Assembly (NCBI GenBank): GCA_017994695.1
Contig: JAGOKF010000028.1
Coordinates: forward strand, 1 to 43,909
Length of the DNA stretch: 43,909 nt
Origin: Myxococcota bacterium
GTDB lineage: Bacteria > Myxococcota_A > UBA9042 > DTJE01
Reading direction: 5' to 3'
In this document: positions 12,531 through 34,302 of the stretch, piece by piece
Numbering within the stretch: the stretch's first letter is position 1
How the letters are laid out: each line of letters opens with the position of its first letter
Translations under genes and position numbers: made by a program
Notes under the pieces: generated by a model
Seen by the model: the letters and a program-made list of their open reading frames with translations, nothing else
Database searches by the model: none
Told to the model about the DNA's origin: nothing

Positions 12531-13474
12531 TCCCGTTCCTCCCGGGCCCCCACCGGGCCCTCCCCCGCCGTGGCCATGAACAGGTCCTCCAGGGACACCT
12601 TCCGGTCGCTGACCTGGACCACCTCCAGCCCCGCCGAAAGCAGCCGTCCCAGGACCTCTCCGGTCCGGTCCCGGTCCACCACCAGGCGATGGACCCCGGG
12701 GCCGATCCGCTGGGGGCTCCCGGCGCCGGGAAGGTCCCCGAGGTCGGCCGGCCAGGGACCCGACACCAGCACCTCCCGGCGGTCGCCCCCCGAGAGGAGG
12801 GCATCCAGGTCCCCCAGGTGCCGGACCTCGCCCCGGTGCAGGATCAGCACCCGGTCGCAAAGACGCTCGATGTCGGCCAGGATGTGGCTCGAGAAGAAGA
12901 CCGTCTTGCCCTGGTCCTTCAGCGACACGATCAGGTCGGCCACCTCCTTGCGCCCCACGGGGTCCAGGCCGGACATGGGCTCGTCCAGCAGCACCAGTTC
13001 CGGGTCGTTCAGCAGGGCCTGGGCGATGCCCACCCGCTGGAGCATGCCCTTGCTGAACTTCCGCAGGCGCCGGTTCCGGGCATGCTGGAGCCCGACCTGT
13101 TCCAGCAGGGTGTCGATCCGCCGGCGCCTCTCCCTGGAGCCCAGGCCGAAGATGCGGCCGAAGACGTCCAGCAGTTCCACGGGCGTCAGGTAGTCGTAGA
13201 AGTAGGGCTGCTCGGGAAGGTAGCCCACCCGGGCCATCACCGGGAGGGACCCGGGGTGCCCTCCCAGCACCCGCACCCGGCCCGCCGACGGGCGGATCAG
13301 GCCCACCAGCACCTTCAGGGTGGTGGTCTTCCCGGCCCCGTTGGGCCCCAGGAAGCCGAAGACCTCGCCCCGGCGCACCGAGAAGCTCGCATCCCGGACC
13401 GCGACGACCTTCCGTTGCACGAAGGGGGTCCGGAAGGTCTTCTGCAATCCCTCGACCTGGATCACTTCCTCCAT
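12527..13474 (-). CDS. ABC transporter ATP-binding protein
   Basis: This 315-residue ATPase of the ABC-2/NosF-GldA class has Walker A GPNGAGKTTT near residue 44, a Q-loop in GYLPEQPYFYDYLTP, signature FSKGMLQRVGIAQAL, Walker B ELVLLDEPMSGLDP and H-loop FSSHILADIERLC. The 'SKGM' form of the signature, instead of SGGQ, is normal for this class. The C-terminal 100 residues are the usual variable regulatory domain. The ATG at 13474 lies inside the end of the aminotransferase gene (13-base overlap) with a GGAGG 8 bases before it. The stop overlaps the permease start. Confidence 0.92.
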   Translation of the reverse strand: MEEVIQVEGLQKTFRTPFVQRKVVAVRDASFSVRRGEVFGFLGPNGAGKTTTLKVLVGLIRPSAGRVRVLGGHPGSLPVMARVGYLPEQPYFYDYLTPVELLDVFGRIFGLGSRERRRRIDTLLEQVGLQHARNRRLRKFSKGMLQRVGIAQALLNDPELVLLDEPMSGLDPVGRKEVADLIVSLKDQGKTVFFSSHILADIERLCDRVLILHRGEVRHLGDLDALLSGGDRREVLVSGPWPADLGDLPGAGSPQRIGPGVHRLVVDRDRTGEVLGRLLSAGLEVVQVSDRKVSLEDLFMATAGEGPVGAREERE

Positions 13475-14613
13475 CGGTCTGCCTCCGCCGGGGGAGTCGC
13501 CGGTTCCATCGCCTCGGCCAGGTGCCGGGCGACCTGGCGGACCTGGAAGGGGGCCATCTCGACGTAGAGGGGCAGGGCGAGGGTCTCCCGGGCCAGGGCC
13601 TCGGCCACCGGGCAGGGGTCCGCATCCGTGAACCGTCGCCGCCAGAAGGTCTGCAGCGTCAGCGCGTGGGCGGCCACTCCGGCCTCCACGTCCCGGTCCG
13701 CCAGCCGCCTCCGGACCTCGGCCGCCGGGCGGTCCAGCCGCACCACCAGCGACTGCCAGGTCTGTCCTGGCCGATCATGCCCCGCGATCCACCGGACCCC
13801 CGGAATCCCCCGGAGAGCCTCCCGGTAGCCCTTCGCCAGCACGCCCCGGGCCCGGATCCCGTCCTCGACCCGGGTCCACTGCACCCGGGCGACGGCCGCC
13901 GCCAGTTCCGAGAGGCGGAAGTTCAGTCCCTCCTCTCCGAAGGCGTCCTCGGTCCCCGTGGGCATCCGGCCGTAGTCCCGCATCGACCGGATCCGCCGCA
14001 GCAGATCCGGGTTCCGGGAGGTCACGGCACCTCCCTCCCCGGCCACCAGGTTCTTCCGGGGATGGAAGGAGAAGACCCCCACGTCGCCGACGGTCCCCGA
14101 GGGGGACCCGCCCGGGGTCCTGCCCCCGATGGAGCACGCCGCGTCCTCGATCAACGGGACGCCCCGGGCCCGGCAGACCCCGGCGATCTCCTCGATATCC
14201 GCCGGGATCCCGAAGGCGTGGGCCACCACCGCCGCGGCGTATGGGCCGTCCCCGAGAGCCCGGGCGATCTCCCCGGGAGAGGGGGCCAGCGTCTCCTCCT
14301 CGACGTCCACCGGAACCGGGGTCGCGCCCAGGAAGAGGGCGGCCTGGGCGGCGGCGGGAAAGGTGAAGGCCGGCACCAGCACCCGGTCCCCGGGGCCCAC
14401 CCCCAGGGCCTTCAGGGCCAGCAGCAGGGCGGATCCCCCGCTGGAGACCGCCGCCACCTCGGCCCCCTCCAGCCGCGCCCGGGTCTCCTCCTCCAGGGCC
14501 TGGACCTCGGGCCCCTGGGTCAGGCGTCGCGAGGACAGCACCCGGCGCAGGGCCTCCCACTCCTCGGCCCCCAGGTAGGGTCGCGCCAGGGGGATCCTGC
14601 GATCGTCGTCCAC
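13462..14613 (-). CDS. DegT/DnrJ/EryC1 family PLP sugar aminotransferase
   Basis: This 383-residue fold-type I aminotransferase would transfer an amino group from Glu or Gln to a keto-sugar nucleotide. Family marks in order: IPLARPYLGAEE (N-terminal), AVSSGGSALLLALKALGVG (PLP phosphate site), VPAFTFPAAAQA, PLIEDAACSIGG, the PLP-lysine segment FSFHPRKNLVAGEGG, and DYGRMPTGTEDAF with LNFRLSELAAAVA. The length is normal. Start: GTG 14613 has GGAGGA 7 bases upstream; GTG 14619 would overlap the upstream stop, but only one base separates it from the Shine-Dalgarno. The upstream neighbour makes or remodels NDP-sugars, which suits a shared amino-sugar pathway. The downstream gene is an ABC exporter in the same overlapping operon. 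Confidence 0.92.
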   Translation of the reverse strand: MDDDRRIPLARPYLGAEEWEALRRVLSSRRLTQGPEVQALEEETRARLEGAEVAAVSSGGSALLLALKALGVGPGDRVLVPAFTFPAAAQAALFLGATPVPVDVEEETLAPSPGEIARALGDGPYAAAVVAHAFGIPADIEEIAGVCRARGVPLIEDAACSIGGRTPGGSPSGTVGDVGVFSFHPRKNLVAGEGGAVTSRNPDLLRRIRSMRDYGRMPTGTEDAFGEEGLNFRLSELAAAVARVQWTRVEDGIRARGVLAKGYREALRGIPGVRWIAGHDRPGQTWQSLVVRLDRPAAEVRRRLADRDVEAGVAAHALTLQTFWRRRFTDADPCPVAEALARETLALPLYVEMAPFQVRQVARHLAEAMEPATPPAEADRWRK

Positions 14614-20575: not shown

Positions 20576-23500
20576 GTGCCCAGAGGCTTGAAAGGGGTTT
20601 CGCGTGCCCTGGTGGTTGCTCTGCTGGCCGGGACCTGGGCCTGCGAGTCGGAGCCCGGCGGCAACCTGCCGGATTCCGGATCGTTCCCGGATTCCGAAGC
20701 GTTTCCGGACGGCGTTCCCGATCTTCCGCTGCCGGAGGATGCCCTGGTCGTGGCCGAGGGATCCCTGGCGGCTCCCGAGGAGGCGTGGATCGCCGCGGGG
20801 GCCGCGTGGTCTCGGGCGTCGTCGGCCGCGACCCAGATGGTGGTCGCGGTGAACGGACTGGTCCTGTGCAGCCTGGAAAACTACGGGCAGTTCCTGCGGA
20901 AGGAGCGCCTCGACGCGGCCCGGAAATCCCTGGAGGTGCTGGCCTCGGCGGGCGAGGGACTGGCGGCGGCGGCCGACGTCCTGGACGGGTCGGTGGCCGG
21001 GGCCCTGGCCGATCCGGGAGCCTTTCTGCGGTCGCCCGTCACGGCGTCCTTCGCCCTGGCGGTCCGGGACGGGAAGGTGACGGATCGCCTGCGGAGGCTT
21101 GCCACGGCCTGCACGGACGAGGCGGAGCGGATCGGTGCCCTGCTGGACCCCCTGGACTTCCTGTCGATCGACAACGCGGGGCTGGATCCGGTGGTGGAGG
21201 CCCTGGCGGCGGCGCCGCGGATTGCCGTGGCCGCCGGGCCCGTCGTGGCCTCGGCGGGAACGGTGACCCGGGCGGCCCTCCCGGTGCCGGCCCGGGCCGC
21301 GATGGCCGTGGAACAGGCCTCTCTGCTGACCGTCCTGGTCGGGGACCTGCCGGTCGTGGCCGGCACGGCCGGCTCCGACGGGACCGCGGGGCCCGTGCCC
21401 CTGGCCGACGGCGGGGCGCTGGCCTGGAGGGGGGACGGCCTGGCTCCGTCCCCGGCGGATCGGGCCGTCGCGGTGGACCCGGGAACGTCCCTGGAAGGAC
21501 AGGGGGCCATCCTGGCATTCCCCCATCCCCGGGCAGCGGTGGTGGACACCCATCCGCTGGCGCCGGGGGAGGCCTGCCGGGTCGCCGACGATCCCGGAGG
21601 CGGCTGTGCCCTGGCCGCCACGGGCCTGCTGCCCCCGGGCGTCTATGTGGACCGCGAGGCCGGAGGGGCCCTGGTGACCGTCGAGGCAGGTCCCTCCCTG
21701 GCGGTCGGTCGTCGCATCTCCGCGGGGCTGGACCGGTACGAGGTGGTCGTGGCCCTTCCCCAGGACCCCGACGCCGTGATGCCCGCGATCGCCTCGATGT
21801 CGCCGGAGCAGGGCCCCATTGGCACCGCGGTCACGCTGGCGGGCAGCGGGTTCGGCACGGACCCGGCTGCCGTGCGGGTCGAGTTCTCCTGCGGCCTGTG
21901 GGCGATCGTCCCGCCCCTCTCGGTGTCGGACTCCTCCCTGACGGCGGTCTTTCCTCCCAGACCCACGCTGGACGTTGCGGGTCCCTGGTGCACATACCGC
22001 CCCGAGGGGGCCCAGGACTGCGGCGTGTCGGTCGGGGTCCGCGGACTCCGGGCCTGGGGAGGCTATTTCCGGGTCACGGGCCTGCCCCAGTGCCCGCCGG
22101 ATCTCCTGTATCCGTGGGACCACGTGGTCCGGAGCGTCGGCGATCCCGTTTGGGCCGTGGGCTGGGGCTTCTCGCCGATCCCGGACCGGAATCTCGCCCG
22201 GTTCGCCGGCGGGGTCACCGTCCCGGCGGAATCCGTCGAACCCGATCCGTACGAGCCCGAGATCTCCCGGGTGGTCTTCATCGTGCCCGAGGGCGCCGTG
22301 ACGGGGGACGTGTCCTTCCGGAACCTCGACGGCATCGATGCCTGGTCTTCCCCCGAGCACCTCGAGGTCGTCCCGCCCACCGTGCCGGTGCTGCTTCCGG
22401 GCCCCTCAGCCGGGGGGCTCCACGTCCCCTGCCTGGCGTTCGATGCCGGTCGTCCCACGCAGCAGAACTGGTGCCACCCCTTCTCCTGGGTCCTGGGCCA
22501 TCGGGATGTCGGCCTGCTGGACTGGGACAGCCCCAATTCCTCCATCGGCCTGGGGGTCCAGGTGGACACCCGCCTCGGATCCGTGCGGCTGGCCCCCCTG
22601 CCCCTCTCCGACGGCCGCCTGCTGATCGCGAACCTGGAGCCCGCCTACGGGATCCTGGCGGGCCTCGGGCCGGGGGACACGGTCACCTTCCGGGTCGAGG
22701 GCCGCGAGCGGGCCAACCTCTTCTTCCGGAGGTCGGAACCGCTGGTGCTGCCGGTGGTGTCCCGCCCGGACGCCGGCACCTTCCAGGAGGACAACGTGGT
22801 CTTCTGGGACCAGGGGGCCGTGCTGTCCGTGGCCCTGGGGGACGCGGTGGTCTTCACGGGGCTGGGGCCGGGGACCACGCTGACCGCGCCGGGTCTCTGG
22901 GAAGGGACCTTCCGTGCCCGGGCCGAGACACCGGAATTCCCGGGGTGGGAGGACTTCTCCTTCGTGCGGGGATTGCGGGTCGTGCCCCCGGCGCCGGGCA
23001 CCTACACCGTCACGAACGAGAAGGGGATCTCGCGGATCCTGGAGGTGCGCCGGGAGGGGACCACGGGCGTGGGCTGGCTGTCCTGCTACGACTTCGAGCG
23101 CTACGTGAACGTCGCGGTTCCCCACCTGGCGGAGGACGGGGGGCTGCTGGGCTGCGGCGGCGCCCGGGTCGAGATCCCCCCGGGGGCCCTGCCGCTCCAC
23201 GACGGGGACGGCGGCTACCAGGTCTGGTGCGCCCGGACGCCGCTCGACTCCCTGGGGGCTCCCGAACTGACCTCGGGGGGACTCCGGACCCAGGTCTTCT
23301 TCGACCCCGAGCCGTCGCATCTGCTGAAGCCCGTCACCATCACGATCCCCTTCGACCCGGAGGCCCGGGGATCCGAGGCGGAACTGGGGCTCTACGACCC
23401 GGAGACGGGCCTCTACGCGAACCTTCCGGCCGATCGGGACGGCGACCGCCTGCGCCTGGTGCTCCCGGCGGGGGCCTACGGACCGGATCCGGGGGTCTCC

Positions 23501-24964
23501 CCGGGGGCTCCCCGGACCGTCGGCGCGGTCCCCTGGCCCCTCCAGAAACTGTCCGTGAACCGGGTCGTCGGGGCCCTGGTGGCGGTGGCCTACCGGTCCC
23601 GGAAAGGGGTGTTGCTGGACGAGGACCGCCAGTTGCAGGTGAACTACGTCGCCACTCCCGGCGAGGCGTCCTACGTCCCCGATTCCTATGCCGGGGAGGT
23701 CCTGGCAGCGGCCCAGACGGCCTGGGACTTCATGACCCGCGAGGGATGGCCCCGTCCCGACGGCTGGCTCGGCGGCTGGATCGTGCTGACCATCACGGAC
23801 CTGGGTCCCCTGACGCACGCCGAGGAGGGGTCCACGACCAAGGGGGTCTTCGGGCAGCCCTGGGTCACCATCAACAGCCAGGTCGAATCCGGCATCCCCC
23901 TGGCCACCACGACGGCCCACGAGATGGGCCACGTCTTCCAGCGGCAGGTGAACAACGTCTTCAGCCTCAAGTGGATCGACGAGGCCGCCGCCCAGTGGAC
24001 CGCCGTGGGGGCCCTGGGGAGCGGCGCCGACATCTCGGGGGACATCACCTGGGCCTCCGATTTCCCGACGGTCTCGATTCCGCCCACCTTCGGCAGCGGC
24101 TGGACCCTGAGCGGCGGGTACACCCAGGCCCAGGCCTACGCCGCCGGCGCCTTCACGGTCTGGATGGAGTCGGTCTCCCGGGGCAGCGTGCTGCGGGTGT
24201 ACGAGCAGTTGCGGGATTCCTACCTGGCCTACGAGGACGCCCGGGGGACCCTCGCGGCGGCCACCGGCCGCACGATCCAGGACATCGTGATCGAGTTCGG
24301 CAAGGCCTACTGGACCCAGGACATGGACCTGTTGAAGGGGATCCGCCTGGGTGCCGCTCCCTACCGTTCCTGGGTGGACTGGACCGGCATGGCCGTCGGG
24401 GACCGGAGGCCCCCATTGTCCAGCATGCGCTGGGACGTGGACCTGGGGGTGAAGGAGGCCGAGATGGCGGGCCGGGACCTGGTCGTGCGGGCCTCGGGCC
24501 TCGGCCCCGGGCAACTGGCCTACGTGTACCGGGACACCATCCCGTGCACGGAGGGCAGTCCCCGGATGGAGCAGGTCCGCATGCTCGACAAGGACCGTCC
24601 CGCCGACCTCCTGGGCACCCATTCGGCTGGGATCCGGTGCTACCGGGTGCTGGTCCTGAACTTCTCGGCGTCCGAGACCGCGGACGTCACGGTGGTGCTG
24701 GCGGCTCCCCAGGTGTCGGGTCTCTCGCCGAGCCAGGGGAGAAACGCCGGGGGCTACCCGATCCGGATTTCCGGGTTCGGTTTCGGCGACCGCCCCGGAT
24801 CGGTGCACCTGGCCGGCTTTTCTCTGAACGTCACGGCCTGGTCGGACACCGCCATCACCGCGACGATGTTCAACGCCGGCTCCATGACCGGTCCTGCGAG
24901 CCTGAAGGTCCTCACGGCCGAGGGCGCCTGGTCCAACGCCGCGACCTTCACCCTGACCGACTGA
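20576..24964 (+). CDS. Giant lipoprotein with TIG domains and HEMGH metalloprotease motif
   Basis: This 1462-residue exported protein starts at a GTG with GGAGGG 7 bases upstream. The signal (RALVVALLAGTWAC) ends in a lipobox with Cys23; the Trp before it is unusual. A short Pro/Asp linker follows (FPDSEAFPDGVPDLPLPED). An Ala-rich helical region runs to about residue 270. An IPT/TIG domain begins near residue 400 (ASMSPEQGPIGTAVTLAGSGFG). Near residue 860 a ZU5-like beta region is plausible (VEIPPGALPLHDGDG...VTITIPFDPEA). HEMGH at 1115-1119 with a Glu at 1136 (WIDEAAAQW) fits a gluzincin zinc site. A second TIG domain closes the protein (SGLSPSQGRNAGGYPIRISGFGFG). It is probably a surface metalloprotease or adhesin; its substrate is unknown. 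Confidence 0.85.
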   Translation: MPRGLKGVSRALVVALLAGTWACESEPGGNLPDSGSFPDSEAFPDGVPDLPLPEDALVVAEGSLAAPEEAWIAAGAAWSRASSAATQMVVAVNGLVLCSLENYGQFLRKERLDAARKSLEVLASAGEGLAAAADVLDGSVAGALADPGAFLRSPVTASFALAVRDGKVTDRLRRLATACTDEAERIGALLDPLDFLSIDNAGLDPVVEALAAAPRIAVAAGPVVASAGTVTRAALPVPARAAMAVEQASLLTVLVGDLPVVAGTAGSDGTAGPVPLADGGALAWRGDGLAPSPADRAVAVDPGTSLEGQGAILAFPHPRAAVVDTHPLAPGEACRVADDPGGGCALAATGLLPPGVYVDREAGGALVTVEAGPSLAVGRRISAGLDRYEVVVALPQDPDAVMPAIASMSPEQGPIGTAVTLAGSGFGTDPAAVRVEFSCGLWAIVPPLSVSDSSLTAVFPPRPTLDVAGPWCTYRPEGAQDCGVSVGVRGLRAWGGYFRVTGLPQCPPDLLYPWDHVVRSVGDPVWAVGWGFSPIPDRNLARFAGGVTVPAESVEPDPYEPEISRVVFIVPEGAVTGDVSFRNLDGIDAWSSPEHLEVVPPTVPVLLPGPSAGGLHVPCLAFDAGRPTQQNWCHPFSWVLGHRDVGLLDWDSPNSSIGLGVQVDTRLGSVRLAPLPLSDGRLLIANLEPAYGILAGLGPGDTVTFRVEGRERANLFFRRSEPLVLPVVSRPDAGTFQEDNVVFWDQGAVLSVALGDAVVFTGLGPGTTLTAPGLWEGTFRARAETPEFPGWEDFSFVRGLRVVPPAPGTYTVTNEKGISRILEVRREGTTGVGWLSCYDFERYVNVAVPHLAEDGGLLGCGGARVEIPPGALPLHDGDGGYQVWCARTPLDSLGAPELTSGGLRTQVFFDPEPSHLLKPVTITIPFDPEARGSEAELGLYDPETGLYANLPADRDGDRLRLVLPAGAYGPDPGVSPGAPRTVGAVPWPLQKLSVNRVVGALVAVAYRSRKGVLLDEDRQLQVNYVATPGEASYVPDSYAGEVLAAAQTAWDFMTREGWPRPDGWLGGWIVLTITDLGPLTHAEEGSTTKGVFGQPWVTINSQVESGIPLATTTAHEMGHVFQRQVNNVFSLKWIDEAAAQWTAVGALGSGADISGDITWASDFPTVSIPPTFGSGWTLSGGYTQAQAYAAGAFTVWMESVSRGSVLRVYEQLRDSYLAYEDARGTLAAATGRTIQDIVIEFGKAYWTQDMDLLKGIRLGAAPYRSWVDWTGMAVGDRRPPLSSMRWDVDLGVKEAEMAGRDLVVRASGLGPGQLAYVYRDTIPCTEGSPRMEQVRMLDKDRPADLLGTHSAGIRCYRVLVLNFSASETADVTVVLAAPQVSGLSPSQGRNAGGYPIRISGFGFGDRPGSVHLAGFSLNVTAWSDTAITATMFNAGSMTGPASLKVLTAEGAWSNAATFTLTD

Positions 24965-25068: not shown

Positions 25069-25626
25069 ATGGCCCTGACCCATTCCTCCCCGCAACCGCT
25101 GGGGTCTCGACTGCCGGCCCACCGTCTGGCCCATCCAGAGGGAGGGCACGTCGAACTGACGTCCCTGGTGGGGGATCGGGGGCTGCTGCTGGCCGTGACC
25201 TGCAACCACTGCCCCTATGCCCAGGCCGTCTGGCCCAGGCTGGTCCGCCTGGCCCGGGAGGTCCGGCCCCTGGGAATCGCCACGGTCGCCGTGAACCCGA
25301 ACCTCCATCCCGATTATCCCGACGACTCCCTGGAGGGCATGGTCCGGGCCGTTTCCCGGTGGGGCATCGACTTCCCCTACCTGGCCGATGGGGATCAGTC
25401 CCTGGCCCGGGCCCTGGGGGCGGTCTGCACCCCGGAGTTCTTCCTGTACGACTCCCGACAGGCCCTGGTCTACCACGGGCGCATGGACGACTCCTGGCAG
25501 GACGAGGGCCGGGTGACCCGGCTGGATCTCCGGGACGCCCTGCTGGCGCTGGTCGAGGGCCGCCCGGTGTCCCCGGACCAGCATCCCTCGATGGGATGCA
25601 GCATCAAGTGGCTGGTCCGAGACTGA
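25069..25626 (+). CDS. Thioredoxin-family (AhpC/TSA-like) redox protein
   Basis: This 185-residue protein has the CNHCPYAQAVWPRL active site near residue 45 (C-x-x-C, with Pro after the second Cys). Other marks are VAVNPNLHPDYPDDSLEGM, FPYLADGDQSLARALGAVCTPEFFLYD (the cis-Pro of the fold in VCTPEF) and the C-terminal PSMGCSIKW signature of this redoxin subfamily. It would reduce disulfides or peroxides in the cytoplasm; no signal peptide is present. The ATG has GGAGGA 6 bases upstream and a clear sigma-70 promoter. The sigma-54 activator gene starts 60 bases downstream on the same strand, so they may share a transcript. Confidence 0.9.
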   Translation: MALTHSSPQPLGSRLPAHRLAHPEGGHVELTSLVGDRGLLLAVTCNHCPYAQAVWPRLVRLAREVRPLGIATVAVNPNLHPDYPDDSLEGMVRAVSRWGIDFPYLADGDQSLARALGAVCTPEFFLYDSRQALVYHGRMDDSWQDEGRVTRLDLRDALLALVEGRPVSPDQHPSMGCSIKWLVRD

Positions 25627-25686
25627 CCCACCGGCCTGCCGGAAGGGCGGGGCAGGGAGTCGGGGACGACGGGGAGGAGGACCCTC

Positions 25687-27144
<1,458 letters not shown>

Positions 27145-27146
27145 GA

Positions 27147-27218
27147 CCGGTCGTGTTGCCCGGGTGACGGAACGCAACATATCGCAACATCAAGACGCAA
27201 CATATGCAACACGACCGG
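27147..27218. promoter_or_regulatory. Clustered GCAACA boxes: probable upstream activating sequence
   Basis: Starting two bases after the activator stop, GCAACA occurs at 27174, 27184, 27197 and 27206, and its complement TGTTGC at 27154-27159. The outer pair forms a perfect 13-bp inverted repeat: CCGGTCGTGTTGC (27147-27159) and GCAACACGACCGG (27206-27218). CGCAACATAT is repeated exactly at 27173 and 27196, 23 bases apart, about two helical turns. The cluster is 59-130 bases upstream of the sigma-54 promoter, the normal distance for enhancer sites. That the neighbouring activator binds here is inference. Confidence 0.75.
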
Positions 27219-27276
27219 CATTGTCCGGGCCCCCTGTAACGCCATGTTTTCGTGAATGTCTTGTGGGCGGCAACAA

Positions 27277-27290
27277 GGCACGCCTCTTGC
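27277..27290 (+). promoter_or_regulatory. Sigma-54 (-24/-12) promoter of the octahaem cytochrome gene
   Basis: GGCACGCCTCTTGC matches the sigma-54 consensus GGCACG-N4-TTGC at every defined position, and a T-run follows. GG is at 27277-27278 and GC at 27289-27290, ten bases between. Transcription would start near 27302, after the ATG at 27256 and before the ATG at 27343, which fixes the cytochrome start. Confidence 0.88.
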
Positions 27291-27342
27291 TTTTTCCAGG
27301 AAGCAGGTCGCGCCTTCCACGGGCGCCTTTCCAGGAGGAACG

Positions 27343-28686
27343 ATGAACGGCCGCGTCTTGCAAGGGTTCCTGTGGGTCCTTCTGCTGCTGCCTCTCTGTG
27401 CCTGTTCCAACGAGGAGTCGACGACGGATCCGGGCGGGACGACCGACGTTCCGGTCCTGGACCTCCCTTCCGATCTGGGGACCACCGATCTGGGAACGGT
27501 CGATCCGGGCGTCCCCGATCCAGGACCGGTGGACCCCGGCACTCCCGATCCGGGCCAGGCGGATCCCGGCACTCCCGACCCCGGCACGCCGGATCCGGGC
27601 ATCCCGGACGAGGGACAGTCGGATCCCGGCGAGTACGACCCGGGGACCCAGGATCCCGGAACCCCGGACGAGGGGACTCTCGATACCGCCACGGACCCCG
27701 GGGTCGAGGACCCCGGACCCCCGGGTCCCGTCCAGACGTTCCCGACCAGCCTCCATGCCACCGTCCGCGGCATGCGGACCGTGTATGAGGAAGGGTACCT
27801 CGCCCTGACCGAGGTGCCCTACGACACCCCGAACCTGGGCTGTGGAAACTGTCACGCCCCGGCCATCCAGAACCTCCCGCGGCGATGCGAGTCCTGTCAC
27901 CTGGTGCCCGGGGAGAAGGTGGCCGACTCCACCTGCATCGGGTGCCACAGCCGGCAGAAGACCTCGGCCGCCATCGGCCTCTATCCCGACGTGCACCTCC
28001 AGGCGGGCATGCACTGCATGGACTGTCACTCGACCCGGGAGATGCACGGGGACGGCACCGAGTACGCCTCGATGTGGGATGAAGGGGCCACCGACACCCG
28101 GTGCGAGAACTGCCACCAGAAGCCCGACTCCGTGTCCCACCAGGTGCACGGCGACAAGCTGGACTGCACGGCCTGCCACGTGAAGAGCGCGGTGTCCTGC
28201 TTCAGCTGCCATTTCGACAGCCAGGTGGACCAGGGAAAGAAGATCCACGCGGGGGCGCTCCACGGCTGGACGTTCCTGGTCAACCGGAACGGCAAGGTCC
28301 GATCGGGCGGCTTCCAGTCCCTGACCTTCCGAAACGCGAATCGCTATGTCCGCTGGGCCCCGTTCCACGACCACACCGTGACGGCCCAGCCGCGCCAGTG
28401 CGGGGACTGCCACAACAACGCCGCGGTGCAGGAATACAAGGCGAACGGCACGATCCGCCTGACCTGGTGGGATCCCGACGCCCCCGAGGGCCAGCCGAAA
28501 CTGAAGAACCTCCAGGGCGTGATCCCGGTGGTGGCCGGCAAGATGCGGTTCCAGTTCATGGTGAACGACGGGACCTCCTGGGTGCCGATGTCCGAGGGCG
28601 TCGTCGCCCCCGACCAGGAAACCTTCTGGTCCTGCTCGGGGCTCACCGATGCCCAGATGACGAAACTGGGCATGAGCATCGAGTAG
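27343..28686 (+). CDS. Octahaem c-type cytochrome lipoprotein
   Basis: This 447-residue exported lipoprotein has a signal (FLWVLLLLPLCAC) that ends in a lipobox with Cys21. Residues 29 to about 125 are an Asp-Pro-Gly-rich linker with 13 DPG units. The haem domain has exactly eight CxxCH sites: CGNCH, CESCH, CIGCH, CMDCH, CENCH, CTACH, CFSCH and CGDCH, between residues 167 and 357. Seven are closely spaced and the eighth is about 65 residues on. The C-terminal 90 residues have no haem site (PVVAGKMRFQFMVNDGTSW). Eight haems on an anchored, spaced-out domain suit electron transfer at the outer membrane or in the periplasm. A GGAGGA site and the sigma-54 promoter support the ATG at 27343. Electron donor and acceptor are unknown. 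Confidence 0.93.
   Translation: MNGRVLQGFLWVLLLLPLCACSNEESTTDPGGTTDVPVLDLPSDLGTTDLGTVDPGVPDPGPVDPGTPDPGQADPGTPDPGTPDPGIPDEGQSDPGEYDPGTQDPGTPDEGTLDTATDPGVEDPGPPGPVQTFPTSLHATVRGMRTVYEEGYLALTEVPYDTPNLGCGNCHAPAIQNLPRRCESCHLVPGEKVADSTCIGCHSRQKTSAAIGLYPDVHLQAGMHCMDCHSTREMHGDGTEYASMWDEGATDTRCENCHQKPDSVSHQVHGDKLDCTACHVKSAVSCFSCHFDSQVDQGKKIHAGALHGWTFLVNRNGKVRSGGFQSLTFRNANRYVRWAPFHDHTVTAQPRQCGDCHNNAAVQEYKANGTIRLTWWDPDAPEGQPKLKNLQGVIPVVAGKMRFQFMVNDGTSWVPMSEGVVAPDQETFWSCSGLTDAQMTKLGMSIE
27427..27732 (+). repeat. Asp-Pro-Gly coding repeat region
   Basis: Thirteen DPG units in about 100 codons, mostly in the forms PDPGT, VDPGx and xDPGx, give imperfect GATCCCGGC/GATCCGGGC repeats in the DNA. They encode an extended linker between lipid anchor and haem domain. 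The short repeats make length change by slippage possible. Confidence 0.75.
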
Positions 28687-28910
28687 CGCGTTGGATCCTG
28701 TTCCGGGCGCGGATCGGGCCAGGATCTCCCCGCGAATCCCGTCCCGACCACAATGCCTGCCGTGCCGCCGCGGACCCTGGGGAAGGTCCTCCCGGTCGAA
28801 CTGCCCGCCCCGATCCGGCGGGGAACCCGTCCGAGCGTCCTCCGGGGTCCCGGCTTCCGGACACCCGACGGGTCCGCTACAATGACCCCATTCCCTGGCC
28901 GGAGACGACC
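28687..28910 (+). other. Intergenic region between cytochrome and lipoprotein genes
   Basis: 224 bases. GATCCTG (28694-28700) and CAGGATC (28720-28726) could form a 7-bp hairpin after the cytochrome stop. The right end carries a TACAAT -10. No gene is supported; short frames here have poor codon bias. Confidence 0.4.
28878..28883 (+). promoter_or_regulatory. Putative -10 (TACAAT) for lipoprotein gene 28911
   Basis: GCTACAAT precedes the ATG at 28911 by 28 bases. The same octamer lies before the tRNA and the TatT-like gene. The -35 is not recognisable. It suggests the lipoprotein has its own sigma-70 promoter besides any readthrough from the cytochrome gene. Confidence 0.45.
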
Positions 28911-31348: not shown

Positions 31349-34234
31349 TCAGGGGGCGATCCGGCAGGACACCTGGTAGTCCCACGCCGTGCCCGGCTCG
31401 CCGCCGATGACCCGCACCGTGAAGAAGTCGGTCCGGCCCTTCACGAACAGTCCCGAGACGCTGCCGTAGCCGGGACCGGCGATCCCCCCGGGATAGCGGG
31501 GGTTGCCCTCGTAGGACGCATCGCCCCGCCAGCCCGTCGAGAGGACCACGAGCCCGTCGGGGTACTCCGCCAGGAACATGTCAGGGATCGAGTAGGCATC
31601 GAACTGGAGGTCGAACACGGCCCCCTTGGGAATGGCCGAGATGTCCCAGGTGTCCACGGTTCCCGACGATCCCCCGGAACCGGCGGCCTGCCAGGTGTTG
31701 CAGATGGTCAGGTCGTACTCCCGCTCGGGGACCTCCCCGATGACCACCATCGCGGTGCCGTCGGCGAGGTTCCGGGCCTCGGCCTGGGCCACTGCGTAGA
31801 CGCCGAAGGATCCTTCGGCGGCGAACCGGTGGTAGATCGTCGTCCCCGCCCGGCCTCCCTGGACGGGCAGGACCTGCTGACCCAGGGCCGTCTCGGACCC
31901 GTCGCCGAAGTTCCAGGACAATGTGACGGCGCCGACGCCCGCCGGGATGCCCACCACGTCGATCTGGAAGGGGTATTCGCTTTCCGGGTCCCCGGAGAGG
32001 AACGACGGCACGATGGTCAACTGGGTCCCGACGGTGACCGCCGCCCGGGCGTCGGCCATCTGGGCCCCCGTGTCGGGCCGGAGGACCTGGGCGGTGACGA
32101 TGAAGGACCCCGGCGCCTGCCAGGCATGCCGGATCGAGGTTTCGGCCTTGCCGTCCACGACCGGCTGGTCCTCCTCGCCGGTGGTCCCGTCGCCGAAGTC
32201 CCAGGCGAACCGGACGGTCTGCACCTCGGAGGGGATGCGGTTCGCCTGGAGGGTGAACGGATAGGTCTCGCCCACCTGCCCGCCCTCGATCCGGGAGGGG
32301 TCGATGGTCAGCGAGGTGTCCACCACCACCTCGACCTCCGGCATCTTGTCCGGGTCCCCGATGCCGTAGGGCAGGCCGACGGCCCCGAAGAACCCGTCAT
32401 AGACCCGGACGTTCAGGGCGTACCGGCCGTCCTCCCCTTCCTTCGGCTTCCATTCCTGCTGGACGATGCCATCGGGGGGCATCGTGGCCTCGATCAGCGT
32501 CTTCATGGGCGGGTTCGGAACGGCCTCCGTGGGTTGCGGGAAGGCCACGAAGACCGTCCGCGCCCCCTCGGCCCCGATGGCGTCGGCCCGCAACTGGACC
32601 ACCTCGTCCACGGTCACCTTTCGGGGGCTGGCCCGGAGCCTCGGTTTCGGGGAACCCTTCAGCACCCGCTTGTACTGGAACAGCACCACGTCGATGCTGC
32701 CCATCGAGGGCAGCCCGAGCCTTCGCAGCAGGCGGTTCACCGGGTCCAGCGTCTCCATCAGCGGCGACAAATCCGCCACGACCCCCGCGTAGACGTTCCA
32801 CTCGGGCCCCTTGTAGGACCGTTCCGCCGGGTCGAAGGGCAGGGCCAGGGCCAGGTCGAGGCCCCCGAAGATCTTCAGGCTCACGGTCTTCGCCGCCAGC
32901 AGTTCCCAGTGGGCCAGCTGGATCGACTTGGCCAGGATGGCCCGGAAGAAGGGCTCCAGGGACACCTTGAACTCGTTCTTCATGCCGGCGCTGGCCCCTC
33001 CGAGGGTGACCCCCTCCCCCGTGTCCTGGCGGTCCCGGATCGGGTAGAAGCCGCTGCCGGCGTCGTAGCCGAATCCCACCTTCACCTCGACGCCCTTGTC
33101 CACCTTGGGGCCGTTCAACTTCACTTCCCCGGCGGCGTAGGAGATCTTCAGTTCGAAGCCGAACTCCGGCTTCACGCTGGGGGCGATCCCCACGGGCCCC
33201 AGGAGCGGGAAGAAGGCGAAGGGGATCGTCGCCACCTCCTGGGAGCATTCCAGTTTACCCGTCAATCCCCCGGTCAGCGAGATCTCGCCGAGGGTTCCCA
33301 CGATGGCGGCCTGGCCCCTCAGGTAGAACTCGAACTTCTCCACCGTGCTGGAGACCCAGCCCCGGGTGATCCGGATCTCGACCACGGGGTGCAGCTCGAA
33401 GCGCTGTTCCAGCGAGAAGCCCGAGATCCCCACCTGGACCGTGCTCCCCTCGGTCTTGCACTTCAGCCCCGACAGGGAGAGGGCCGACTGGAGAGCCCCT
33501 TCCTCGTCCGGGGAGGTCTCCTCGGGGGCCTCCCGGGACCAGTCCCGGGAGGTCCGGGTCACGCGGACGCCGTCGTCGTCCAGCACGCCCTCGAAGATCA
33601 CGGGCGCCCCCTCGGCGATCACCGAGAGTTCTTCGAAGACCTCGGTCAGCGTCGCGGGGACGGTCTCCCAGGTCCCCCGGCCGTCATCCTCGTCCACCAC
33701 GTCCACGACGCGGTCCAGCAGTCCCCCGGTCCAGCCCCCGAAGAGCACGGTGCCAATGCCGATGTTCCCGGTGGCCGCGGTCTTCCGGAGGGTCACCCAG
33801 GCCCGATCGCGGGTGTCGGGGTCGGGATACGCGATGCCCTCCAGGGCGTCCCTGGGGACCACCACGGCACCGTCGGCCAGGTCCGCGATGGCGACGACCA
33901 CCACGGCGGGCGGGAGGGCGCCGGCCTTCACGGTGATCGTCGCCGACCCCACCTCGCCGGTCATCGCCGTGACCTGGCCGCCGTCGTCCACCGAGGCCAC
34001 CTCTGGGGCACTGGACTCGAAGGACAGGGCGACGCCCTCGACGACCTTCCCCTTCGGATCGTGGACCCTTGCCTGGATCCGGGCCGTCTGGCCGGCCTCG
34101 AAGAACACCAGGAAACCGTCCGACACGATCTCGATGTAGCCCTCGTCCGGCGGCGACGAGGAGCCGCAACCGCCCGTCGCCACGATGGATCCCAGGACCA
34201 GCGCGGCGGCCCACCGGTTCGACCTTCCTGCCAT
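31349..34234 (-). CDS. Large surface lipoprotein with Ig-like and two PKD domains
   Basis: This 961-residue lipoprotein has signal RWAAALVLGSIVATGGC (Cys23). An Ig-like, Big2-type domain follows (GQTARIQARVHDPKGKVVEG, SSAPEVASVDDGGQVTAMTG). The next 400 residues hold a beta-rich region of unknown type (GQAAIVGTLGEISLTGGLTG, then KLNGPKVDKGVEVKVGFGYD). From about residue 690 two PKD domains appear, marked by FAWDFGDGTTGEEDQ and LSWNFGDGSETALG. A C-terminal domain closes it (YDLTICNTWQAAGSGG). Start: ATG 34234 has GGAGG 6 bases before it. ATGs at 34264 and 34291 lie further upstream and give no better signal peptide. It is probably a surface protein binding glycans or other proteins; no enzymatic motif is seen. 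Confidence 0.85.
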   Translation of the reverse strand: MAGRSNRWAAALVLGSIVATGGCGSSSPPDEGYIEIVSDGFLVFFEAGQTARIQARVHDPKGKVVEGVALSFESSAPEVASVDDGGQVTAMTGEVGSATITVKAGALPPAVVVVAIADLADGAVVVPRDALEGIAYPDPDTRDRAWVTLRKTAATGNIGIGTVLFGGWTGGLLDRVVDVVDEDDGRGTWETVPATLTEVFEELSVIAEGAPVIFEGVLDDDGVRVTRTSRDWSREAPEETSPDEEGALQSALSLSGLKCKTEGSTVQVGISGFSLEQRFELHPVVEIRITRGWVSSTVEKFEFYLRGQAAIVGTLGEISLTGGLTGKLECSQEVATIPFAFFPLLGPVGIAPSVKPEFGFELKISYAAGEVKLNGPKVDKGVEVKVGFGYDAGSGFYPIRDRQDTGEGVTLGGASAGMKNEFKVSLEPFFRAILAKSIQLAHWELLAAKTVSLKIFGGLDLALALPFDPAERSYKGPEWNVYAGVVADLSPLMETLDPVNRLLRRLGLPSMGSIDVVLFQYKRVLKGSPKPRLRASPRKVTVDEVVQLRADAIGAEGARTVFVAFPQPTEAVPNPPMKTLIEATMPPDGIVQQEWKPKEGEDGRYALNVRVYDGFFGAVGLPYGIGDPDKMPEVEVVVDTSLTIDPSRIEGGQVGETYPFTLQANRIPSEVQTVRFAWDFGDGTTGEEDQPVVDGKAETSIRHAWQAPGSFIVTAQVLRPDTGAQMADARAAVTVGTQLTIVPSFLSGDPESEYPFQIDVVGIPAGVGAVTLSWNFGDGSETALGQQVLPVQGGRAGTTIYHRFAAEGSFGVYAVAQAEARNLADGTAMVVIGEVPEREYDLTICNTWQAAGSGGSSGTVDTWDISAIPKGAVFDLQFDAYSIPDMFLAEYPDGLVVLSTGWRGDASYEGNPRYPGGIAGPGYGSVSGLFVKGRTDFFTVRVIGGEPGTAWDYQVSCRIAP

Positions 34235-34302
34235 CTCCATCCTCCTGTCTTCGAACGTCTTCATTGAACCCCTTTCCGGACGCGAAGCCAAGGGGGCGGT
34301 TT

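What the first reader, a model, noticed from the sequence alone, without database searches (positions are those of the whole stretch)
27147..27218. Unusual enhancer architecture: 13-bp outer inverted repeat enclosing three direct GCAACAT half-sites
The outer arms CCGGTCGTGTTGC and GCAACACGACCGG are perfect complements 46 bases apart. Between them three GCAACAT copies run in one direction, two sharing CGCAACATAT with a 23-base period. Typical enhancer sites are a few palindromes; here direct half-sites dominate and only the outermost pair is inverted. This could set up a hexamer-sized array or a looped complex.
Basis: seen in the sequence. Interest (0 to 1): 0.55.

Follow-up and report, generated by a model that had tools for sequence, protein, structure and literature searches.

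The report
Phased half-site enhancer for octaheme cytochrome
A row of short, mostly same-direction DNA boxes about one helical turn apart, found in several related genomes, is probably the docking site for a neighbouring sensor-activator that switches on an eight-heme electron-carrying protein; it is a sound but modest variation on a well-known bacterial switch.

Summary
The repeats are real and most likely form the upstream activating sequence of a sigma54 promoter. They begin 2 bp after the stop of a PAS-AAA+-Fis activator gene (25687-27144) and lie 70-121 bp before the window's only strong -24/-12 site (27276-27291), which precedes a lipoprotein gene with eight CXXCH motifs (27343-28686). 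The core is GCAAC(A): four direct copies (27174, 27184, 27197, 27206) and one inverted (27154). In the one same-genus genome held, whose activator is 58% identical, the four direct boxes keep their distance to -24 within 1 bp although surrounding bases agree at chance level (26%). Two distant genomes have GCAAC arrays, inverted copies mainly distal and direct ones proximal, before octaheme cytochrome genes. In these four genomes direct neighbours peak at 10-bp spacing; inverted partners do not. So direct half-sites do dominate. The 13-bp outer inverted repeat is not conserved as such, and repeats like it arise in 18 of 60 shuffled windows. Binding, subunit geometry and any hexamer link are inferred. 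Tandem half-sites are published for other such activators: a new variant of a known kind.

The parts
25687..27144 (+). sigma54 activator gene (bEBP): PAS - AAA+ with GAFTGA - Fis-type HTH, recognition helix HRVTLWKWMR; full-length homologs align from about residue 30-39, so the start may be ATG 25771
27147..27159 (+). left arm of the 13-bp inverted repeat; contains the inverted half-site TGTTGC (27154-27159)
27174..27179 (+). direct half-site 1, GCAACA (GCAAC starts 102 bp before the -24 element at 27276)
27184..27189 (+). direct half-site 2, GCAACA (-92)
27197..27202 (+). direct half-site 3, GCAACA (-79)
27206..27218 (+). right arm of the inverted repeat; contains direct half-site 4, GCAACA (27206-27211, -70), extended to GCAACACGAC, which also occurs in the G081 array (-112 and -157)
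27276..27291 (+). sigma54 -24/-12 promoter AGGCACGCCTCTTGCT (11 of 12 consensus positions; only GG-N10-GC site at that level in the window on either strand; 20 shuffled windows averaged 0.1)
   Evidence: rpoN present in the genome
27333..27338 (+). AGGAGG, probable ribosome-binding site
   Evidence: sequence
27343..28686 (+). probable target: lipoprotein with DPG-repeat linker and 8 CXXCH motifs
27270..27275 (+). one further GCAACA just before the -24 element, outside the array; not present at that place in G001; unassigned

Best explanation
The element is the upstream activating sequence of the sigma54 promoter at 27276-27291, bound by the PAS-type enhancer-binding protein encoded directly upstream. 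Shown by sequence: gene order activator - half-site array - -24/-12 site - octaheme lipoprotein gene; an array of one inverted distal and four direct proximal GCAAC(A) half-sites spaced close to one helical turn; conservation of that array and of its distance to -24 in the same genus, and of its letters and main polarity in two distant homologs. Inferred: the HTH of the activator recognises GCAAC(A); several activator subunits sit on one face of the DNA; a signal (perhaps redox, through the cysteine-bearing PAS domain) triggers oligomerisation; the short intervening DNA loops so that the GAFTGA loops reach sigma54-RNA polymerase and open the cytochrome promoter.
For: Activator with Sigma54_activat, PAS and Fis HTH domains. 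Only -24/-12 match of 11/12 or more in the window. rpoN in both G000 and G001. Three-box array unique in G000 and, in G001, found only at the orthologous place; a stricter four-box pattern in 52 genomes hit 3 genomes: these two and a plain tandem repeat in G044. Direct half-sites at -102,-92,-79,-70 (G000) and -101,-91,-79,-71 (G001), with 28 of 108 bases (26%) identical outside the four direct half-site cores in an ungapped alignment anchored at -24. Independent test: the pattern search in eight homolog genomes hit, among other places, the activator's upstream region in G081 and G105. There GCAAC/GTTGC count 7 and 6 in 180 bp (3 and 0 of 10,000 shuffles), with a 10-of-12 -24/-12 site before an octaheme gene. 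Of the 9 homologs with a visible [HS]R[VIM]TLWKW[ML][KR] helix, the 3 with HR (G000, G001, G081) have GCAAC arrays, while the 6 with SR do not; three of those have other repeated letters (GTTAAC in G010a; CGTAA in G212 and G021a). A further homolog with another HR helix (MHRTTLWRKA, G010c) has 10 GCAAC/GTTGC in 260 bp (0 of 5,000 shuffles) beside a divergent 10-of-12 promoter.
Against: No binding, footprint or expression data. Few genomes carry the GCAAC version, and the G105 HTH lies beyond its contig end. The G001 promoter scores only 9 of 12 (0.08 expected in shuffles of its 666-bp region). The reversed control of the three-box pattern hit once in G001. In homologs with SR helices any-word enrichment (5-mers; 6-mers) was clear for G010a (2; 10 of 500 shuffles) and G021a (9; 5), weak for G212 (31; 226) and absent for G004 (500; 278). 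G047a and G250 showed no array, no promoter downstream, and upstream only a 9-of-12 match in G047a that I take for chance. In G081 and G105 the three-box pattern also hits elsewhere (6 and 7 hits in all, two at the activator in each; reversed controls 5 and 8), so there it is not unique. In G010c the boxes run in mixed directions. A further GCAACA at 27270 is unexplained.
Confidence: 0.88

Rival explanations
1. The array is a set of ordinary palindromic NtrC-type sites (half-site - N5 - inverted half-site) in which one half of each has decayed; the direct look is incidental.
For: G001 does contain a perfect TGTTGC-N5-GCAACA, the geometry of the NtrC-like regulator NmpR (GCGCA-N5-TGCGC; PMC11841059, passages). 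UASs of this class are described as palindromic (PMC7264223, passages), and Fis-type DBDs are generally held to bind as dimers (recalled).
Against: Over 24 half-sites in four species the direct neighbour signal peaks at -10 and +10 bp (2.58 and 2.62 of 5 letters; mean 1.44, sd 0.36). The inverted signal at -10 is 1.62 (mean 1.20, sd 0.32); 20 of 24 sites have only 2-3 of 5 partner letters in the window -13 to -9, and the two perfect partners are the one G001 palindrome. Against this: the inverted profile has values of 1.8-1.9 at -19, -29 and +5, from the wider inverted pairs.
Confidence: 0.25
2. It is an RNA element: a hairpin in the 3' end of the activator transcript (terminator, attenuator or processing site) formed by the 13-bp arms.
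For: The RNA folds into a stem of the two arms, -34.2 kcal/mol, z = -2.05, 6 of 200 shuffles as good.
Against: No terminator-like site in 25500-28900; no Rfam match at gathering threshold; the outer arms are not kept in the ortholog, while box letters, about 10-bp phasing and distance to -24 are.
Confidence: 0.05
3. The array is a local tandem duplication of a 22-23-bp unit without function.
For: ACGCAACATAT is repeated exactly with a 23-bp period.
Against: The spacing recurs in G001 with different flanking letters, and arrays with different spacings (10/10 in G081; 8/10/8 in G105) recur beside homologous activators.
Confidence: 0.03
4. The boxes bind another regulator (repressor or a second activator), not the adjacent activator.
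For: Recognition was not tested; other HTH proteins also use tandem boxes (for example PhoB, PMC8041468, passages).
Against: Adjacency to genes of one activator family in four genomes, in two gene arrangements (co-directional in G000 and G001, divergent in G081 and G105), and box letters that differ where the recognition helix differs.
Confidence: 0.06

Closest known systems
Nla28 sites of Myxococcus xanthus (PMC9765219; abstract and passages)
   Same: NtrC-like activator, sigma54 promoters, at least two and often three to five tandem imperfect half-sites; changing half-site 1 or 2 abolished binding in vitro
   Different: 8-bp half-site CT[C/G]CG[C/G]AG that is itself nearly palindromic; mean spacing 25 bp; half-site 3 of the nla28 promoter was dispensable for binding; two-component regulator rather than PAS one-component protein
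anfA - anfH region of Rhodobacter capsulatus (PMC7294313; passages)
   Same: Activator gene, then UAS in the intergenic region, then -24/-12 promoter and target gene
DVU3142 - ohcBAC of Desulfovibrio vulgaris (PMC4641369; sections 6 and 10 and passages)
   Same: One-component sigma54 activator adjacent to octaheme cytochrome genes with a predicted sigma54 promoter and binding sites
   Different: Divergent arrangement; site geometry not given in the text read; the cytochrome belongs to a membrane Ohc complex
DVU2394 (direct-repeat motif; PMC3333781, passages) and DVU2956 (three half-sites; PMC4641369)
   Same: Binding sites reported as a direct repeat, or as three half-sites
   Different: Few details in the passages read; that DVU2394 is a sigma54 activator is recalled, not seen
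PilR of Pseudomonas aeruginosa (Jin et al. 1994: only the title seen in a reference list; content recalled)
   Same: Recalled: four tandem (N4-6)(C/G)TGTC boxes upstream of the pilA -24/-12 promoter, i.e. direct boxes about 9-11 bp apart
   Different: Response regulator; different box; no octaheme target
NmpR of Myxococcus xanthus (PMC11841059; passages)
   Same: sigma54 activator with two sites upstream of oxygen-related genes
   Different: Canonical palindrome GCGCA-N5-TGCGC

Membership tests
Bacterial enhancer-binding proteins (NtrC family), for P0001 | sigma54-interaction AAA+ domain with GAFTGA loop | tested here: met
   PF00158 1.9e-70, residues 175-340; GAFTGA read in the sequence
Bacterial enhancer-binding proteins (NtrC family), for P0001 | Fis-type HTH at the C terminus and a sensory N-terminal domain | tested here: met
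   HTH_8 3.8e-07 at 441-471; PAS 7.1e-14 at 37-146
sigma54 upstream activating sequence | Lies upstream of a -24/-12 promoter in a genome with rpoN | tested here: met
   27276-27291, 11 of 12; Sigma54_DBD 8.8e-64
sigma54 upstream activating sequence | Several copies of one site, conserved with the activator gene | tested here: met
sigma54 upstream activating sequence | Sites are dyads (inverted half-sites at about N4-N8) | tested here: not met
   G000 has one inverted half-site, 14 bp from the nearest direct one; its direct copies have at best 2-3 of 5 partner letters. Published exceptions exist, so this is not strictly defining
sigma54 upstream activating sequence | Bound by the activator and needed for activation | not testable with these tools
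   needs EMSA, footprint and reporter
Octaheme tetrathionate-reductase family (TIGR04315), for the target P0002 | Score above the curated cut-off 375 bits | tested here: not met
   P0002 has no TIGR04315 match at E 0.001; G001 ortholog 19.5 bits. Six of the eight target proteins scanned pass (441-555 bits)
Octaheme cytochromes in the broad sense, for P0002 | Eight CXXCH motifs in a secreted protein | tested here: met
   8 CXXCH; signal peptide with lipobox-like LCAC read by eye
Intrinsic terminator | G+C-rich stem-loop followed by T run | tested here: not met
   0 found in 25500-28900 (shuffles mean 1.3)

The most novel reading that the evidence does not exclude
The enhancer is a helically phased rail of about six half-sites that engages the DNA-binding domains of one activator hexamer head-to-tail on one DNA face, one box per subunit, instead of three dyad-bound dimers. 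This would be a non-canonical DNA-binding mode for a Fis-type sigma54 activator, in a family dedicated to octaheme cytochromes.
Probability: 0.2. Interest if true: 0.65.

Novelty: new variant of a known kind. Interest (0 to 1): 0.42.

Why it matters
sigma54 enhancers are usually described as palindromic sites (for example PMC7264223, passages). A conserved enhancer in which direct boxes near 10-bp spacing dominate offers a natural system to ask whether activator subunits can load onto DNA head-to-tail and how box number relates to the assembled ring. The same comparison links an undescribed group of PAS activators to octaheme cytochromes and suggests their target sites from recognition-helix letters.

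Tried and rejected
Cryptic palindromes: tested by offset profile and not favoured. RNA hairpin or terminator: none, none, modest z = -2.05. A second array in the same genome: the three-box pattern hits only this place in G000, so not near the cytochrome paralog at G000:C19 (39% identity), whose upstream side may be cut by the contig end. TGTTGC-N(1-22)-GCAACA is too loose: 49 of 52 genomes match and the reversed control hits in 44 of 52 (in G000 1 against 0, in G001 6 against 0). Relatives of the cytochrome in 84,980 species by peptide pattern: 5 loci, best segments 38-46% identical (no array hunted there beyond the box listing of L033). Homologs of the G212 activator in its order: one more, G251, cut by its contig end and not read. 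Homologs of the G081 activator in its order: none beyond G105 and G250 at 1e-115.

Paper searches. Their listings show no description of this enhancer or of a sigma54 link for octaheme tetrathionate-reductase-type cytochromes in this group; listings are capped and only twelve papers were opened. Of these, PMC4641369 was read in sections 6 and 10 plus passages; the other eleven in passages only. PMC10418997, PMC3262810, PMC6058289 and PMC12316311 gave nothing that I rely on.

The count of six half-sites was kept only for the novel reading: exact counts are 5 (+1 at -6) in G000, 6 in G001, 7 in G081, 6 in G105, and I chose the word counted.

A promoter match of 9 of 12 is weak evidence: shuffles of the same regions give 0.08-0.53 per 666 bp at that level, and 0-0.07 at 10 of 12.

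Full report
Observation. The core is GCAAC(A). Four copies run in one direction, at 27174, 27184, 27197 and 27206 (spacing 10, 13, 9), and one is inverted at 27154; the fourth direct copy is part of the right arm. In the 180 bp before the -24 element, six GCAAC/GTTGC occur (one of them at -6, outside the array); 2 of 10,000 dinucleotide-preserving shuffles reach that. A three-box pattern occurs once in the 3.96-Mb genome, here, with no hit of the reversed control. The 13-bp outer repeat by itself is weak evidence: a perfect inverted repeat of that size with a spacer up to 60 appears in 18 of 60 shuffled windows.

Surroundings. The element starts 2 bp after the stop codon of an activator with PAS, Sigma54_activat and Fis-type HTH domains. 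Downstream is AGGCACGCCTCTTGCT at 27276, matching 11 of 12 positions of the -24/-12 consensus. It is the only match at that level on either strand of the window (GG-N10-GC required), and 20 shuffled windows averaged 0.1. rpoN is present in this genome and in its same-genus neighbour. The next gene encodes a lipoprotein with eight CXXCH motifs. No NCBIfam model covers it above cut-off; in Pfam it has short matches to Cytochrome_C7 and Cytochrom_CIII.

Same-genus comparison. One same-genus genome is held (G001). The cytochrome is 74% identical over its C-terminal 316 residues and the activator 58% over residues 34-474, in the same order. Its intergenic region and the last codons of the activator carry one inverted and five direct GCAAC. 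Measured from the start of the -24 element, direct half-sites are at -102, -92, -79, -70 in G000 and -101, -91, -79, -71, -66 in G001; the inverted one is at -121 and -111. In an ungapped alignment anchored there, 28 of 108 bases outside the four direct half-site cores agree, which is chance level. Five randomly placed boxes match all four positions within 1 bp in 196 of 200,000 trials at the fixed anchor, and in 3,909 of 200,000 if a shift of up to 15 bp is allowed. The stricter four-box pattern hit 3 of 52 genomes of the class: these two loci and a plain tandem repeat in G044, whose reversed control hit five times. In G001 the three-box pattern hits only this place, in three overlapping registers; its reversed control hits once. 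The G001 promoter, TGGCTTGATTCTTGCC, scores 9 of 12; 0.08 such matches are expected in shuffles of its region.

Distant homologs. Homologs were collected from 52 class genomes and 377 phylum genomes (15 with a match at 1e-105 or better). From the tops of those lists I read 24 loci: 18, 5 and G105. Nine have a recognition helix of the form [HS]R[VIM]TLWKW[ML][KR]; a tenth close homolog, G105, loses its HTH at the contig end. Of these ten, eight have a -24/-12-like site (9 of 12 or better) next to the activator and before a plausible target: G000, G001, G004, G010a, G021a and G212 downstream, G081 and G105 on the divergent side. G250 has none on either side, and G047a only a 9-of-12 match upstream that I take for chance. 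The helix with HR occurs in G000, G001 and G081, and these three have GCAAC arrays. G081 has GTTGC at -157, -147, -137 and GCAAC at -112, -102, -92, plus one nested GCAAC at -142. G105 has GTTGC at -136, -126 and GCAAC at -107, -99, -89, -81. Shuffles reach these counts in 3 and 0 of 10,000. These two arrays came up in a pattern search made in eight homolog genomes for that purpose. The search also shows that the three-box pattern is not unique in those larger genomes: 7 of 8 genomes have hits; G081 has 6 and G105 has 7, two of each at the activator, against reversed controls of 5 and 8. In all four genomes the inverted copies are distal and the direct ones proximal to the promoter, except the nested copy in G081.

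A fifth GCAAC locus. While checking this report I saw that one further hit lies upstream of G010c, a homolog 44% identical with another HR helix (MHRTTLWRKA). Its upstream region has 10 GCAAC/GTTGC in 260 bp (0 of 5,000 shuffles), including three GTTGC at spacing 10 and 8, beside a divergent 10-of-12 promoter, but the remaining boxes run in mixed directions. This supports a link between HR helices and GCAAC, and it shows that the tidy polarity is not universal.

Other letters. With the six SR helices the boxes differ or were not found: GTTAAC four times in G010a (any 5-mer as frequent as the best one: 2 of 500 shuffles; 6-mer 10 of 500), CGTCA/CGTAA in G021a (9; 5), CGTAA-like in G212 (31; 226, weak), no significant word in G004 (500; 278), none seen in G047a and G250. 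A homolog with an unrelated helix, G047b, has TGAAAC three times in each direction (0 of 500 for the 6-mer). G012, G030 and G032 showed no significant exact word, though G032 has two near-palindromes by eye. So direct arrays are not universal in the wider family.

Direct or palindromic. Over 24 half-sites from the four GCAAC regions (G010c not included), the mean match to another GCAAC peaks at offsets -10 (2.58) and +10 (2.62); the mean over offsets is 1.44 and the standard deviation 0.36. Values at +20 (2.21) and +30 (2.08) are also high, but -20 (1.42) and -30 (0.88) are not, so only the 10-bp peak is firm. The match to an inverted partner at -10 is 1.62 (mean 1.20, sd 0.32), with its two perfect cases from the single G001 palindrome; the inverted profile is higher at -19 (1.83) and -29 (1.88), from wider inverted pairs. 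This profile uses the same sites that suggested it, so it measures geometry, not significance.

Targets. A first gene behind the promoter was sought at 13 loci. Eight encode proteins with exactly eight CXXCH motifs: G000, G001, G004, G010a, G021a, G012, G081 and G105. Six of these eight are TIGR04315 octaheme tetrathionate-reductase family members above cut-off; G000 and G001 are not. The other five: G030, G047b and G053 encode other proteins by eye, G032 gave no credible gene, and G212 is cut by its contig end. The octaheme link is therefore a property of most of the TLWKW group plus G012, not of every homolog.

Mechanism. Best reading: the activator binds the array, is triggered through its PAS domain (by eye three or more cysteines cluster there in 22 of 23 aligned homologs; signal unknown), assembles, and contacts sigma54-RNA polymerase by a short DNA loop to turn on the cytochrome gene. 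Gene order, promoter, array and conservation are shown; binding, signal and assembly are inferred. Most such activators form homohexamers (PMC7057263, passages), although a tetramer is reported for DmpR (PMC7264223, passages). Most factors bind head-to-head and head-to-tail is uncommon (16 factors in a P. aeruginosa survey, mostly OmpR family; PMC8041468, passages). An array dominated by direct boxes is thus somewhat unusual for this class but has precedents: Nla28, DVU2394 and, recalled only, PilR.

Verdict. Ordinary in kind (a sigma54 enhancer beside its activator) and unusual in geometry, with fair comparative support for that geometry.

Noticed in passing
window 25771-27144; alignment of 23 homologs: By eye, 22 of 23 aligned PAS domains carry a cluster of three or more cysteines (about C-x7-C-x4-C-x6-C in G047a, C-x8-C-x3-C in G032; none in G039), suggesting a metal, Fe-S or thiol redox sensor; G000 has three where its relatives have four.
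   Followed up: partly
L088, L089, L091, L092, L094, L102, L125, L084: Box letters seem to follow the recognition helix: HRxTLW with GCAAC; SRVTLWKWMK with GTTAAC; SRMTLWKWMR with CGTAA; HKATLLRKM with TGCGAC. Could be developed into a recognition code; support is uneven between loci.
   Followed up: partly
window 27420-27720: The cytochrome lipoprotein has a long DPG-rich repeat linker; other targets carry other repeats in that place (TVDPG in G001, Cys-rich repeats in G021a and G105), as if each lineage builds its own cell-surface stalk.
   Followed up: no
G000:C19:12389-12934 (L026, L038): A second, 39% identical cytochrome in the same genome, near a contig end; no GCAAC array elsewhere in that genome.
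   Followed up: partly
window 25084-25626: AhpC/TSA (peroxiredoxin-like) gene directly upstream of the activator gene, same strand.
   Followed up: no
L087 (G047:C415), about 9-76 bases after the activator stop: Three GTTTCA boxes followed by three TGAAAC boxes upstream of a 12-of-12 -24/-12 site and a gene that looks by eye like a metallo-beta-lactamase-fold enzyme: another multi-half-site enhancer of a different activator.
   Followed up: partly
L084 (G010:C58), about 100-350 bases upstream of the activator match at 13007-14305: Ten GCAAC/GTTGC boxes in 260 bp beside a divergent 10-of-12 -24/-12 site; mixed directions.
   Followed up: partly
window 20576-24964 and 31349-34291: Very long ORFs with IPT/TIG and PKD/Big domains flank the locus.
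   Followed up: no
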